From Fusobacterium ulcerans (GTDB lineage Bacteria > Fusobacteriota > Fusobacteriia > Fusobacteriales > Fusobacteriaceae), in assembly GCF_003019675.1 (NCBI RefSeq), contig NZ_CP028105.1:822282-886281 (forward strand): DNA of 64,000 bases, written 5' to 3'. The position numbers were made by a program, and so were the translations under genes. Shown here in pieces: positions 58,044-63,896 of this stretch. Below the pieces are notes generated by a model. The model had not been told where the DNA came from. It saw nothing but the letters and a program-made list of their open reading frames with translations, and did not search any database. Each line of letters starts with the position of its first letter. Position 1 is the first letter of the stretch.

Positions 58044-58703
58044 TTATAATCTGTAAAAATTCTCAAAGTAATTTTCACTTATTTTTTTGAGGATACTTCT
58101 TCCCAGATATATCTTCTGTCCACTATTAGTCATTACATATTCCTCTTTATAATCTATTTCCTTTACCTTCTTTATATTGAGAATTATACCTCTTTCAATT
58201 CTAATAAAGTCAGAATCTTCCATAAATTTTTCTATCTCTGTAAGTGATTTTTTTAGGAAATAGGGATTTCCATCAATAACAGCAAAAGATTTTTTTTGAT
58301 TTCTGTCATATGAAAAATATTCAATATCCTCCATAGGAATTATCACATCTTTAAAGCTGTCAGATAATATAACCTTGTTCTTTCTATCCAGCTTCACTTT
58401 TTCCTGCTCTGGTGTAAAGAATTTCTCAAAAAATATATACTCGTCTCTTCCATGAAAAGACATCTTATTTATAAAGTCACTGTATCTCTTTAAAAATTTC
58501 GTCTCTACTCTGTCTGAATAAATATATATTTTCTTTAAATTTTCAAGGGATATATTTTCCACATTAAAAATATTATTATCTGTTATAAGTATACTTTCTT
58601 CTGCAAAGCCATTTTCAAAACTTTCCACTCTTCCAATATCAAAAGTAAAAGTTTCTTTTAAAAGGTAGAAAAACAAATCATCTCCATAAAATAGAAATCT
58701 CAT
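58044..58703 (-). CDS. LytTR-domain transcriptional regulator
   Basis: 219 residues. The C-terminal 100 residues are a LytTR DNA-binding domain (DVIIPMEDIEYFSYDRNQKK; DSDFIRIERGIILNIKKVKE; MTNSGQKIYLGRS). The N-terminal part is not a normal receiver: no phospho-acceptor aspartate context is visible. The start overlaps the upstream membrane-protein stop by 1 base, so the two are a coupled pair. Confidence 0.85.
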   Translation of the reverse strand: MRFLFYGDDLFFYLLKETFTFDIGRVESFENGFAEESILITDNNIFNVENISLENLKKIYIYSDRVETKFLKRYSDFINKMSFHGRDEYIFFEKFFTPEQEKVKLDRKNKVILSDSFKDVIIPMEDIEYFSYDRNQKKSFAVIDGNPYFLKKSLTEIEKFMEDSDFIRIERGIILNIKKVKEIDYKEEYVMTNSGQKIYLGRSILKKISENYFENFYRL

Positions 58704-60283
58704 TATTTTTCACCTCCACTATCTTCAGTTAATTTTTTCCTGATTATACTTACTATCTCCATTTTTTTTCTGTCATCAACTTTTTCTAAAAGACCAGCCA
58801 GTTCTTTTATATAGAACAAATCCTTTTCAAGAACTTCTATCTTTTTATTAAGCTCTTTTTCTATTTTTTTATAGTGATGTATCTGGAGATTTTTCAGCAG
58901 AAGATTTTCAATTACAGGAGCCACTTCCAAAGTAAGCTTCTTAAAGTTTTTCAATTTTCTTCTATACAGCAGCATACGAGGATCTTTTATACAGATAAAT
59001 CCTAAAAGTTTTTTTCTATTCTGTATTTTTATTCTCACATCATATTTTTTTCCTTCAAAAACAGGAGAAAAGGTTATCAGTGGTTCATCCTCATATTCAC
59101 TGGAATCAAAATCAAGATCGAATACTACCATTTTAAATTCTATAAGTCTAAATATTCTCATATATCCATCTTCTAAGAAAATATAAAATTCATTTAAAGA
59201 TTCTATTCCCTTTAATTTATTAAGAAAATTATCAAAATTTACCTCTTCCTGCTCTGAAAAAAATAGAAAAACAAAAGAGATAATCTCTACAGATATAATT
59301 ATTGCAAGCATTCCTGTTACATATCCAGTAAGTATATTTTTCTTAATAAAATAACTTATAGTTATAAAAGTTATCAGTATTCTTATTACATTGAAATTTA
59401 TAGTTCTAAAAAACTGATTGTCTGTTGTAAGCTTAATATCTTCAAGCTGTACATGAACAAAAAGTATATTAAGCATAAAGTGAGCCATAAATTCAAAGTT
59501 TCCATATAAATTAAGCTCGTTATAAATATATATGCTGCATAAAAGCTGTATTGAAAAAAGTATGAAATAGTAAAAAGATTCTTTTTTCTTGTTTTTATTT
59601 TTATTGTAGAAAATTGAAATAAAACTGAATATCATTATTATGACAATAAAGCCATTCTTAAAATAATCAAAAAATATCTGAAGTCCCAGAGTAGGACTCA
59701 TGAAATCTTCAGTGAAATATATAGTATGAAATTCTTTAATAGCAAGGGAAAGAGGAAAAACTGTTGCAATTATAAGAATAAGATTTATTATATTTATTAT
59801 CTTAGACTGCTTGTTAAACAACAGTTCCCAGAAATATTTTATAAATCTTATATAACCGCAAAATACAAATATCCAGCTCAAAATAGTAAGAAATACTTTA
59901 GTATTATCAAATGGCAGTACATAGCTTAAAATTTCCGTTCCTATGGCAAATGAAAAATAAAGAGAGCCTATGTACAATATGCTTTCTTTGCAAGTTTTAT
60001 GAAAAAGTATAGTAAGAAGTATCAGATATGTCAGATACCCGCTTCCTAAAAATAATATAATATATCTTTTATAGGCATAGATAAGAGACATATTTACATT
60101 TTCTGTCACTACATCTACCTTTAAAAGCTGTATTAAATCCGATACTCTTGAATAGTCTGAAAACTCTTCTTTGAGAGGTATATCTCCTATAAAATTTAAA
60201 CATATAAATGATAAAAAAAGAAAAAATATTATCAGTATTATTTCAGATACATGATTCTTTCTTACTATTTCTATTATTTTCAT
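58703..60283 (-). CDS. Multi-pass membrane sensor-like protein without kinase domain
   Basis: 526 residues. A first helix (about 14-33) and periplasmic loop precede seven to eight closely spaced helices (about 70-345), resembling 7TM sensor modules. A cytoplasmic region (about 355-465) has a GAF-like look, and the C-terminus is a long coiled coil (about 468-526, KIEKELNKKIEVLEKDLFYI). There is no histidine-kinase ATPase domain. With the LytTR partner it may form a kinase-free signalling pair. Confidence 0.7.
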   Translation of the reverse strand: MKIIEIVRKNHVSEIILIIFFLFLSFICLNFIGDIPLKEEFSDYSRVSDLIQLLKVDVVTENVNMSLIYAYKRYIILFLGSGYLTYLILLTILFHKTCKESILYIGSLYFSFAIGTEILSYVLPFDNTKVFLTILSWIFVFCGYIRFIKYFWELLFNKQSKIINIINLILIIATVFPLSLAIKEFHTIYFTEDFMSPTLGLQIFFDYFKNGFIVIIMIFSFISIFYNKNKNKKKESFYYFILFSIQLLCSIYIYNELNLYGNFEFMAHFMLNILFVHVQLEDIKLTTDNQFFRTINFNVIRILITFITISYFIKKNILTGYVTGMLAIIISVEIISFVFLFFSEQEEVNFDNFLNKLKGIESLNEFYIFLEDGYMRIFRLIEFKMVVFDLDFDSSEYEDEPLITFSPVFEGKKYDVRIKIQNRKKLLGFICIKDPRMLLYRRKLKNFKKLTLEVAPVIENLLLKNLQIHHYKKIEKELNKKIEVLEKDLFYIKELAGLLEKVDDRKKMEIVSIIRKKLTEDSGGEK

Positions 60284-60616: not shown

Positions 60617-61093
60617 ATGAAAACTGGAATTTTTTATGGAAGCACAACTGGAGTTACTCAAGATATTTCTGAAAGAGTAGGTAAACTATTAAATGCAGAT
60701 GTTATGCCAGCATCTGATATTGATAAAATAAAAGATTATGATCTAGCTATCCTTGCTACATCTACATGGGGTATGGGAGATCTTCAAGATGACTGGTTTG
60801 ATCCTCTTGATAAATTAAAAACAATGGATCTTGCTGGAAAGAAAATAGCTTTCATAGGAGTAGGAGACCAAGAAGGATTTGGAGATACTTTTGTTGACGG
60901 AATAGGAATAATCTATGATGAAATAAAAGGTAAGGGAATCACTCTTGTAGGAAAAACTTCTACTGATGGATATTCATTCTCAGATTCAAAAGGTGCAGAT
61001 GATGGCGAGTTCTTAGGACTTGTTATTGATGAAAATAATCAAAGCAACCTTACTGATGAAAGAATAGCTGCATGGGTTGAAAAATTAAAATAA
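60617..61093 (+). CDS. fldA: Flavodoxin
   Basis: 158 residues. The FMN-phosphate loop is GIFYGSTTGVTQDIS, with the aromatic FMN-binding loop ATSTWGMGDLQDDW and a second loop GVGDQEGFGDTFVDG. It is a low-potential electron carrier that can replace ferredoxin, for example with the pyruvate:ferredoxin oxidoreductase encoded 7 kb away. AAAGGAGAGTTATAATT precedes the ATG. Monocistronic. Confidence 0.95.
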   Translation: MKTGIFYGSTTGVTQDISERVGKLLNADVMPASDIDKIKDYDLAILATSTWGMGDLQDDWFDPLDKLKTMDLAGKKIAFIGVGDQEGFGDTFVDGIGIIYDEIKGKGITLVGKTSTDGYSFSDSKGADDGEFLGLVIDENNQSNLTDERIAAWVEKLK

Positions 61094-61104
61094 TTATATA
61101 AATA

Positions 61105-61145
61105 AAAAAGACTGTAGGATTTATTTTTCATCTACAGTCTTTTTT
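61105..61145. terminator. Terminator between flavodoxin and Hint-protein genes
   Basis: AAAAAAGACTGTAG/CTACAGTCTTTTT stem with a 14-base loop and T-runs on both strands, between convergent genes. Confidence 0.85.
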
Positions 61146-61150
61146 ATTAT

Positions 61151-61555
61151 TTATCTTCTATTTTGTATGCCAAAATCTCCAACTGCTATTCCTTCAGCTA
61201 TCATGAAATTTCCAGAAATATCTAAATTATATACTCTTCCATTGTACTCAATGCAGCTTATTGAAGCAATTTTATATTTTTCTCCATAAGCAACTAATAT
61301 TTCATCATCTTCATTTATTTCATCTGCTTTTTTTACTTCTGATACAGTTTTTACAGGGTGGTTTTTAGTAAGTGTAATTTTTGAACCATTTTTCAGTTCT
61401 ATACACATCATATGTTCCTCCCTTCCCTGCCATACATTCATTACTCTTTGAGTTTTGCCAGAATCACTCATTACTTCTTCTCCTATTCTTATCTCCCTAA
61501 TAGGTTTTTGTGATCCATCAGCCATAAATATTCTAGTATTTTCTTCTAAGCACAT
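61151..61555 (-). CDS. Stand-alone Hint (intein/hedgehog-type) domain protein
   Basis: 134 residues forming essentially one Hint domain. It starts Met-Cys (CLEENTRIFMADGSQKPIRE), matching the N-terminal splice-block cysteine of inteins once Met is removed. The middle has LTKNHPVKT, the conserved histidine block, and the end is VYNLDISGNFMIAEGIAVGD, then FGIQN. There is no host protein around it and no homing endonuclease. Self-cleavage or ligation, or loss of activity, are all possible. GGAGG lies 10 bases before the ATG. Confidence 0.75.
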   Translation of the reverse strand: MCLEENTRIFMADGSQKPIREIRIGEEVMSDSGKTQRVMNVWQGREEHMMCIELKNGSKITLTKNHPVKTVSEVKKADEINEDDEILVAYGEKYKIASISCIEYNGRVYNLDISGNFMIAEGIAVGDFGIQNRR

Positions 61556-61647
61556 TCCACATCATCCTCCATAAAGTAAATAAAATATGACCCCATTTCC
61601 CTTAATACAATTATAACTTATTTCCCGTTATTTTCAAAAGAATAATA

Positions 61648-62454
61648 CTATTTTTTTACAGGTATCTGAATTTCAGTGACATATTCATTTATATTATCGG
61701 TAATATGTATCTCTATATGGTAGATTTCAATTATATCTCCTGTCACAGTGAGATTATTTTCCTTTATATACTTTTTTAAAAAAGTATAATGCTCCCTTAC
61801 TTTTTCATAGCTTCCCTTAAATACAAAAGTAAGATACATTCCTCCTTCTATTATATTTTCTGTTTTATCAGCAGTTATTACAAATGTACTGCTGTAATCA
61901 AGATATTTATTATTTTCCCAATTTTCTTTGAGAATAGTAGTTCCAACTTCACTTTCAGTAAAAATAAAATCATTGTCATCTGGAAGTTTCTTTTTAAGTT
62001 TTTTAAGTTCAAAGTCTATCTCCCATTCTTCGTGAAAATTTCCCTTTTTATACAGAATATATCTTTTATTTATCTCTCTTAATACAGGTTTTTCATATTC
62101 CTGAAAATCTTCAAAATATTCTATATTCTTTTTTTTATCTTCAAGTTCTTTTTTTAATTCAGAAAGCCTTTTCAATTTTTCTTCTATTTTTATAAGCTGA
62201 AAATCTATTACCTCTTTTGTTTTTATTAAGCTTCTGTCCTCCATAAAATCTGTTATTTCTTTTAAGCCAACTCCCAAATTTCTTAAATTTCTTATATTAT
62301 TCAGTTTCCATATCTGTTTTTGAGAATAATATCTGTATCCATTTTCATCTCTTGCATCTGGAATAATCAGACCTATTTTTTCATAATGTCTCAAAATATC
62401 ACTACTTATATTATACAGTTTGCTTATCTCTCCAATCTTATATAGTTTCTTCAT
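61648..62454 (-). CDS. MerR-family transcriptional regulator with effector-binding domain
   Basis: 268 residues. MerR winged helix: YKIGEISKLYNISSDILRHY, then YYSQKQIWKLNNIRNLRNLG. A coiled-coil dimer helix follows (about 80-115) and a C-terminal GyrI-like effector domain (about 120-268) ends ITEIQIPVKK, as in BmrR/multidrug-sensing regulators. It is divergent from a MATE gene with a typical MerR operator between, so it probably controls that efflux gene. Confidence 0.9.
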   Translation of the reverse strand: MKKLYKIGEISKLYNISSDILRHYEKIGLIIPDARDENGYRYYSQKQIWKLNNIRNLRNLGVGLKEITDFMEDRSLIKTKEVIDFQLIKIEEKLKRLSELKKELEDKKKNIEYFEDFQEYEKPVLREINKRYILYKKGNFHEEWEIDFELKKLKKKLPDDNDFIFTESEVGTTILKENWENNKYLDYSSTFVITADKTENIIEGGMYLTFVFKGSYEKVREHYTFLKKYIKENNLTVTGDIIEIYHIEIHITDNINEYVTEIQIPVKK

Positions 62455-62573: not shown

Positions 62574-63896
62574 ATGAAAGAAAAAAAATCGTTAATAAGG
62601 ACCATACTGAGGTATAGTATACCCTCTGTAATCTCTATGTGGATGTTCACTATTTATACTATGGTAGATGGTATCTTCATTGGAAAATATGTTGGTCCTT
62701 TAGGTCTTGCAGGAGTAAATATTACTATGCCTCTTATCAATTTTACATTTGCCATTGGAATAATGATAGCTGTTGGAAGTTCAACAATGATAGCTATACA
62801 TTTTGGTGAAGGTGACTGAACAGCTGGGAATAAAATATTTACTACAGCAACTTTGTCTTTGGCTGTCTTTGGAATAATCCTCTCTGTTCTTATAACAATA
62901 TTTATAGAGCCTGTTATCCATTTTTTAGGTGGTGGTGGAGTATTATTCCCATATGTAAAAGATTATATGAGTGTTGTTATTTTATTCTGTACTTGTTATA
63001 TGGTTGGTTATGCTCTTGAAATATATATAAAAGTAGATGGCAATCCAGTGTATCCCGCTATTTGTGTTATGACTGGAGGTCTTATCAATATAGTTTTAGA
63101 TTATCTTTTTGTGGTAGTATATCCCTATGGGATAAAAGGAGCTGCTTTTGCTACTGGTATGTCACAGCTTACTTCTACTTCTATGCTTCTTTTTTACATA
63201 CTATTTAAAACTAAAAAAATAAAATTTGTAAAATTAAAATTCTCATTTAAAGAGTTATTGAAAATTTCCAAGGTAGGTTTTGCTGAATTTCTAGCAGAAG
63301 TTTCTACTGGTATTGCTATTTTTGTTTTTAATATTATTATTCTGAGAGAATTAGGAGAAAAGGGAGTATCCGCTTTTGGTATAATTGGATATATCTCATC
63401 CTTTGTTGTTATGACTATGATAGGATTCAGTCAAGGAATACAGCCTATTGTCAGTTTTAATCTAGGAGCAAAGAAATATGCCAATGTAATAAAAACATTA
63501 AAAATAAGTCTTTTGATGATAATTGCCACTGGAGTTGTTTTTTATGGAAGTATCAATTTCTTCTCCAATAAAATAATTTCTACTTTCTTAAATGATACTG
63601 AAACATTTAAGATGACTAAATACGCTCTTGCAGCTTACAGTTTTGCCTATATAATTACTGGACTGAATATAGTTACAGCTGGATATTTTACCGCTGTAAA
63701 AAAAGTTAAAATATCTACTATAATAACTATTTTAAGGGGAGTTGTTCTTATAATTGTCTTCCTTGAAATTCTTCCTAAAATATTTGGTACAGCAGGTATT
63801 TGGTGGTCTGTTCCTGCTGCTGAATTAGTAACCCTTGCTTCATCAATATACTTCATAAAAAAATATATCCATAAATATGAAGCTCTTAGAGTGTAA
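62574..63896 (+). pseudogene. MATE efflux transporter interrupted by an in-frame TGA
   Basis: A 440-codon MATE-type reading frame (LRYSIPSVISMWMFTIYTMV, DGIFIGKYVGPLGLAGVNIT; second half ISKVGFAEFLAEVSTG) is intact except for TGA at 62817-62819, between FGEGD and TAGNKIFT, with no frame change. The remainder is open to 63896 and shows no decay. A point nonsense mutation (for example TGG to TGA) or a read error are likely. AAGGAGTGATTTAT precedes the ATG at 62574. Its operator suggests induction by the divergent MerR protein. Confidence 0.85.

What the first reader, a model, noticed from the sequence alone, without database searches (positions are those of the whole stretch)
61151..61555. Stand-alone Hint domain starting Met-Cys
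An intein-like domain without extein hosts or an endonuclease, with the catalytic Cys at position 2 and a histidine block. It may be a domesticated self-processing module, a bacterial intein-like relict, or part of a trans-acting system. The C-terminal motif ends FGIQN followed by Arg-Arg, unlike normal HN plus Cys/Ser/Thr.
Basis: partly seen in the sequence, partly recalled or inferred. Interest (0 to 1): 0.6.

Follow-up and report, generated by a model that had tools for sequence, protein, structure and literature searches.

The report
Stand-alone intein-like Hint protein
A small bacterial gene makes nothing but an intein-like domain that keeps its cutting half, has lost its releasing half and has no partner protein left to cut; it is a real, mildly conserved gene whose job is unknown.

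Summary
In detail: window 61151-61555, on the MINUS strand, encodes a 134-aa protein that is one complete Hint domain starting Met-Cys, with no extein and no endonuclease. It is a gene of its own (promoter-like site, GGAGG, in-frame stop just upstream, terminator-like hairpin), not the broken end of a larger gene. Orthologues (78-81%) with the same neighbours occur in 3 of the 11 other same-genus genomes searched; substitutions favour synonymous change, though the gene evolves faster than its neighbours.

By structure comparison V125-G126-D127 lies where inteins have V-H-N; FGIQNRR lies beyond it. The N-terminal catalytic residues (Cys, TxxH) are present; the Asn-cyclisation pair is not. The same "VGD/VGG...Q" end occurs in the C-terminal Hint domain of roughly 550-660-aa proteins of Reinekea, Pseudoalteromonas, Tistrella, Azospirillum and Embleya, probably the unnamed bacterial Hint group noted by Burglin in 2008. 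Their N-terminal domain was not found in the genus.

Best reading: an orphaned, Hog-like (N-terminal-thioester) Hint domain that cannot splice and has nothing in cis to cleave but Met; after Met removal it would expose an N-terminal Cys in a Hint pocket, retained for binding or thiol chemistry in trans. Function not shown.

The parts
61151..61555 (-). 134-aa stand-alone Hint domain protein, M-C-L-E-E-N...V-G-D-F-G-I-Q-N-R-R
   Evidence: ORF; Pfam/NCBIfam; model; PDB matches; orthologues
61550..61552 (-). Cys2 codon, aligned with intein/Hog residue 1 (block A nucleophile)
   Evidence: codon read; position alignment ranges; same Cys in 24 of 24 Hint domains compared
61358..61369 (-). T63-K-N-H66, block B TxxH
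   Evidence: codons read; T or S, then xxH, in 24 of 24 domains compared
61175..61183 (-). V125-G126-D127, in the place of the intein V-His-Asn (block G); Asn-cyclisation pair absent
   Evidence: codons; VIA alignment ends model 127 on the last residue of RecA, PI-SceI and GyrA inteins; VGD shared with distant relatives
61154..61174 (-). F-G-I-Q-N-R-R, short C-terminal helix in C-extein position; Q131 conserved in the relatives
   Evidence: DSSP helix 128-133 of the model, last block pLDDT 72; conserved Q
61566..61570 (-). GGAGG ribosome-binding-like sequence, 10 nt before the ATG
   Evidence: GGAGG also in the 3 orthologues
61610..61637 (-). promoter-like TTGAAA-16-TATAAT
   Evidence: 11 of 12 matches (where 3 sites were found against 4.7 expected by chance, so weak alone); TTGAAA-16-TATAAT also in the 3 orthologues
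61103..61146 (-). terminator-like hairpin with T-run, placed to serve this gene and the convergent flavodoxin gene
   Evidence: fold -16.9 kcal/mol, z -8.05; missed by the simple scan

Best explanation
The gene encodes a free-standing Hint domain from a bacterial Hint lineage that retains the N-terminal thioester half of the chemistry (Cys2, T63-x-x-H66) and has lost the C-terminal Asn-cyclisation half (His-Asn replaced by Gly-Asp). In its fused relatives this domain is the C-terminal part of a larger, sometimes secreted protein and would act Hog-like: N-to-S acyl shift at the Cys, then release of the N-terminal domain. In this genus the N-terminal partner is missing and only Met precedes the Cys. 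So the protein cannot splice and cannot cleave anything in cis except Met. Most likely Met is removed by methionine aminopeptidase, leaving a folded cytosolic Hint domain with a free N-terminal Cys in its pocket, kept for binding or thiol/acyl chemistry in trans. Shown by computation: single-domain gene, fold, residue pattern, orthologues, absence of the partner in the genomes searched. Inferred: ancestry from a fused protein, Met removal, loss of splicing, and any function.
For: Hint fold with C2 and D127 on the intein termini. Cys and [ST]xxH in 24 of 24 domains compared. VGD...Q in 17 of 20 proteobacterial/actinobacterial loci examined (four of the 17 look like re-fetched or near-identical copies); of the other three, two have VGG and one HN. 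Relatives are C-terminal domains of frames of 551-667 aa. Partner domain: found in 5 of 5 control genomes that carry the fused VGD/VGG protein, in 0 of 4 genomes that carry the orphan, and in 0 of 12 same-genus genomes. Same locus in 4 genomes. Synonymous excess over the neutral expectation in 6 of 6 non-independent pairs, p 9e-6 to 7e-3.
Against: dN/dS of the Hint gene is 0.24-0.50, against 0.03-0.05 (flavodoxin) and 0.06-0.09 (MerR), so constraint is weak. Common origin with the VGD family is not shown: the tree grouping has support 93/84 with the C-terminal columns but 29/7 without them. No expression, partner or activity evidence exists. Inteins ending in Asp or Gln have been reported (title recalled; only a search listing of papers that hold the phrase was seen), so D127 does not strictly exclude C-terminal cleavage.
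Confidence: 0.5

Rival explanations
1. A slowly decaying relic: the C-terminal remnant of a lost Hint-fused protein or intein, still open by chance in closely related species, without function.
For: Narrow distribution (4 of 98 genomes of the phylum); dN/dS well above the neighbours; no partner gene; the next gene, MerR, is itself interrupted in G009.
Against: Intact in 4 of 4 carriers with Cys2, TxxH, VGDF and Q conserved; synonymous excess p 9e-6 to 7e-3; promoter-like site, GGAGG and hairpin present; confident fold.
Confidence: 0.22
2. A non-catalytic structural or binding module: the Hint fold reused for protein or ligand binding, the Cys kept for folding or redox reasons.
For: No substrate in cis; the C-terminal half is changed; Hint is a stable compact fold.
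Against: Cys2 and T63/H66, which serve the N-terminal reaction, are invariant in the orthologues, and Cys and [ST]xxH in the relatives.
Confidence: 0.2
3. Broken end of a larger toxin or polymorphic protein gene.
For: Pretoxin-HINT profile matches weakly (19.9 bits, cut-off 27.7); Hint domains in other genera of the phylum lie mostly in long ORFs, 418-854 aa for six of seven places and 182 aa for the seventh.
Against: In-frame TGA three codons upstream; convergent flavodoxin downstream and a separate MerR gene upstream; same single-domain ORF in 4 of 4 carriers.
Confidence: 0.04

Closest known systems
Unnamed bacterial C-terminal Hint group (Burglin 2008, PMC2362128, which credits Dassa and Pietrokovski)
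   Same: Members listed there include a Reinekea; C-terminal Hint, signal peptides in some. The Reinekea and Pseudoalteromonas proteins found here fit that description and share C...TxxH...VGD...Q with the focal protein.
   Different: The focal protein lacks the N-terminal domain and is the whole gene. That the groups are the same was not checked: the paper's alignments are in supplements that could not be opened.
Hedgehog Hog/Hint domain (1at0)
   Same: Fold, Z 20.6 over 127 residues; N-terminal Cys; no Asn cyclisation expected.
   Different: No N-terminal signalling domain, no sterol-recognition region (134 aa in all).
Type A and type B bacterial intein-like (BIL) domains
   Same: Fold (2lwy, Z 19.7); type B lacks the intein C-terminal motif and cleaves (PMC4031507 passages).
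   Different: Type A has His-Asn; BILs are described as parts of larger proteins (PMC7765530 passages), this one stands alone.
Mini-inteins (gp41-1, Ssp DnaB, Mtu RecA)
   Same: Fold and N-terminal residues; Z 19-21.
   Different: No host protein, no His-Asn, no +1 Cys/Ser/Thr.

Membership tests
Hint superfamily | Hint fold | tested here: met
   pLDDT 93.8; Z 21.5 to 6y75, 1.4 A over 131 residues
Hint superfamily | block A Cys/Ser and block B TxxH | tested here: met
   C2 and T63-K-N-H66
Intein | C-terminal His-Asn followed by Cys/Ser/Thr | tested here: not met
   Gly-Asp followed by Phe
Intein | inserted in frame in a host protein | tested here: not met
   in-frame TGA upstream, stop after QNRR
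BIL type A | C-terminal His-Asn | tested here: not met
   Gly-Asp
BIL type B | no intein-like block G; part of a larger protein; cleavage activity | tested here: inconclusive
   block G is altered, but the protein is free-standing; no type B profile was compared and activity cannot be tested here
Hog | N-terminal signalling domain and sterol-recognition region | tested here: not met
   134-aa ORF, Hint only
Vint (PF14623) | profile score above the cut-off | tested here: met
   28.7 bits, cut-off 27, residues 2-79 only
Vint (PF14623) | fusion to VWA and Vwaint domains | tested here: not met
   no other domain in the ORF
Pretoxin HINT of polymorphic toxins | PF07591 above cut-off, inside a long secreted toxin with a C-terminal toxin domain | tested here: not met
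   19.9 bits, cut-off 27.7; single-domain gene
VGD-type bacterial C-terminal Hint group (defined here) | Cys...[ST]xxH...VG[DG]...Q | tested here: met
VGD-type bacterial C-terminal Hint group (defined here) | C-terminal to the conserved N-terminal domain | tested here: not met
   0 of 4 orphan-bearing genomes hold that domain, 5 of 5 control genomes with the fused protein do
VGD-type bacterial C-terminal Hint group (defined here) | one clade apart from His-Asn Hint domains | tested here: inconclusive
   support 93/84 with the C-terminal columns, 29/7 without

The most novel reading that the evidence does not exclude
A Hint domain turned into a free enzyme: with Met removed, its N-terminal Cys captures acyl groups (thioesters) from other molecules in trans, making it a one-domain acyl carrier or ligase rather than a single-turnover self-cleaver. 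Its 175-aa paralogue in the same genome keeps an 11-residue leader (MNNLKSKCLNG before the Cys) that the same chemistry could release as a peptide thioester, which the leader's own Cys could capture as a thiolactone.
Probability: 0.1. Interest if true: 0.78.

Novelty: new variant of a known kind. Interest (0 to 1): 0.4.

Why it matters
Hint domains are known as parts that act on what they are fused to. A Hint-only gene with an intact N-terminal active site and no cis substrate asks whether the fold can work in trans. The protein is small and confidently modelled, so this is directly testable. It also draws attention to a little-studied bacterial Hint group (VGD...Q) with N-terminal but no C-terminal splicing residues.

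Tried and rejected
Rejected: broken toxin end (rival 3); split intein with a missing half (the domain is complete; one other Hint gene in the genome); phage gene (the tblastn phage hits listed, 20 of 71, are mostly inteins of terminase or helicase genes under 33% identity; PHROG matches weak; no tRNA in the window); defence gene (PADLOC gives only a homing-endonuclease profile over the shared Hint part); Rfam element (3 matches, all far below the gathering score). The one paralogue (L002, 34%) has unrelated neighbours.

Led nowhere: first genome-contig scan with P0001 (30 stretches, none confirmed); viral scans with A3 and with the paralogue (none confirmed); of the 24 viral loci the scripts printed the Hint region of 18, which showed inteins, BIL-like domains or other C-terminal Hint-like domains and no stand-alone VGD protein. 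Literature: no paper found for a stand-alone Hint protein or a Fusobacterium Hint protein (search listings).

Rows dropped: MerR of G009 left out of dN/dS because its frame is interrupted. The p values come from 6 overlapping pairs. One search used 9 of the VGD/VGG domains and 10 HN domains chosen by me.

Full report
WHAT IS THERE. The ORF lies at 61151-61555 on the minus strand and encodes 134 residues. The plus strand has no ORF there. It is a Hint domain by Pfam and NCBIfam. An AlphaFold2 model made from 12 sequences (the window protein and 11 domains from the search for related loci) has mean pLDDT 93.8 and pTM 0.87. Foldseek's best matches are a Tetrahymena BIL domain, the gp41-1 and DnaB inteins and the Hedgehog autoprocessing domain. 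The second look gives Z 21.5 to 6y75 and 20.6 to 1at0.

ONE GENE, NOT A FRAGMENT. An in-frame TGA lies three codons before the ATG. GGAGG lies 10 nt before the ATG. A TTGAAA-16-TATAAT site lies upstream (three such sites were found where 4.7 are expected by chance, so alone it is weak), and the same hexamers with the same spacing stand upstream of the three orthologues. Downstream a hairpin with a T-run (z -8.05) lies between this gene and the convergent flavodoxin gene 60617-61093 (PF00258). Upstream is a MerR/GyrI-type regulator, 61648-62454.

WHO ELSE HAS IT. 4 of 12 same-genus genomes (own included) and 4 of 98 in the phylum carry it, with one extra copy, the paralogue, in the own genome. 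The same-genus orthologues are 78-81% identical and have the same neighbours. Six other same-genus genomes have the MerR-MATE pair without the Hint and flavodoxin genes beside it; at least five show a pair of other membrane-protein ORFs there (chromate-transporter-like by recall), and G011 a second MATE-like ORF. The genus is taken to be Fusobacterium from recall; no call names it. dN/dS is 0.24-0.50 in 6 of 6 Hint pairs, 0.03-0.05 in 6 of 6 flavodoxin pairs and 0.06-0.09 in 3 of 3 MerR pairs. Against a neutral expectation with observed base composition and kappa 4, synonymous changes are in excess in 6 of 6 pairs, p 9e-6 to 7e-3; the pairs overlap.

THE TWO HALVES. C2 and T63-x-x-H66 are the residues of the N-terminal reaction (nomenclature: PMC4031507, passages). 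All 24 domains compared have the Cys and [ST]xxH. At the other end, VIA-align pairs model residues 2-127 with residues 1-440 of the Mtu RecA intein and 1-454 of PI-SceI, and 1-127 with 0-198 of the GyrA intein; that 440, 454 and 198 are the terminal Asn of those inteins is recalled. So D127 sits at the Asn and G126 at the penultimate His. The block F position usually Asp in inteins is N110 here, and it is invariant in A2.

RELATIVES. Full-length matches came from plasmid records and genome contigs. In 17 of 20 loci examined the domain ends VGD...Q; L072 and L073 end VGG...Q and L071 HN. L042, L043 and L044 are the same places as L036, L039 and L035, and L068 looks identical to L008, so distinct VGD members are about 13. 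All 17 are C-terminal in frames of 551-667 aa. Reinekea and Pseudoalteromonas members start with signal-peptide-like sequences (by eye). They are rare: E <= 1e-20 matches in 5 of 385 genomes of the class of G099, of which 4 are VGD-type (the fifth is L071, HN), and in 4 of 194 of the order of G098, of which two are VGD and two VGG. Their shared N-terminal part (A6) gave no match in 12 of 12 same-genus genomes. As a control the same query finds 5 of 5 genomes with fused VGD/VGG proteins; the four orphan-bearing genomes and G449 (HN) give nothing. Burglin 2008 (PMC2362128; section 12 read, other passages) describes bacterial proteins with a C-terminal Hint-like domain, a Reinekea among them, as 'yet another subgroup'; I think it is this one, but the alignments are in supplements I could not open.

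TREE. With the C-terminal columns, the focal proteins, the paralogue and the VGD/VGG domains fall on one side of a branch with support 93/84. Without those columns the split remains but support drops to 29/7. Common descent is therefore likely but not shown.

HOW IT MIGHT WORK. In the fused relatives an N-S shift at the Cys, followed by attack of a nucleophile, would free the N-terminal domain, as in Hedgehog; this is inference from residues. In the stand-alone protein only Met precedes the Cys (MMQM is possible in G008 and G009, but the ATGATG there directly follows GGAGG, so the Met-Cys start is likelier). Methionine aminopeptidase normally removes Met before Cys (recalled). The result would be a Hint pocket with a free N-terminal Cys and no bond to break. 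I think a retained binding or thiol role in trans is likelier than a relic, because the frame and active-site residues persist in four species, but the raised dN/dS keeps the relic alive as a rival.

NOVELTY. Hint domains, Hog-like N-terminal cleavage and the C-terminal bacterial Hint group are known. A Hint-only gene was not found in the literature searched (search listings only). I call it a new variant of a known kind.

Noticed in passing
window 62574-63896 (+), TGA at 62817-62819: A MATE-family transporter gene has an in-frame TGA; read through, it is one full-length MATE protein. A TGA stands at the same place (before TAGNKIF) in 10 of 10 same-genus genomes where the gene was read, so it is not a sequencing error; selenocysteine or programmed read-through is possible.
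   Followed up: partly
L002:1405-1932 (-), own genome G000:C1 near 3109000: A 175-aa paralogue (34% identical) with an 11-residue leader MNNLKSKCLNG before the Cys and a 40-residue charged tail; no same-genus genome other than the own one has it.
   Followed up: partly
L085 and L086 (G009): The MerR regulator next to the Hint gene is interrupted in G009 while the Hint gene is intact.
   Followed up: no
L087:4778-5924 and L080-L084: A two-gene membrane-protein pair (chromate-transporter-like by recall) sits near the paralogue in the own genome and directly beside the MerR-MATE pair in related species that lack the focal Hint gene.
   Followed up: no
window 58703-60283 (-): A 526-aa, apparently membrane protein without any Pfam match, just upstream of a LytTR-type regulator (58044-58703).
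   Followed up: no
L021 and L023 (viral contigs): C-terminal Hint-like domains of viral proteins ending 'FANGLLSGAAFC'/'FANEILSGMAFC' with no His-Asn, another apparently non-splicing Hint ending.
   Followed up: no
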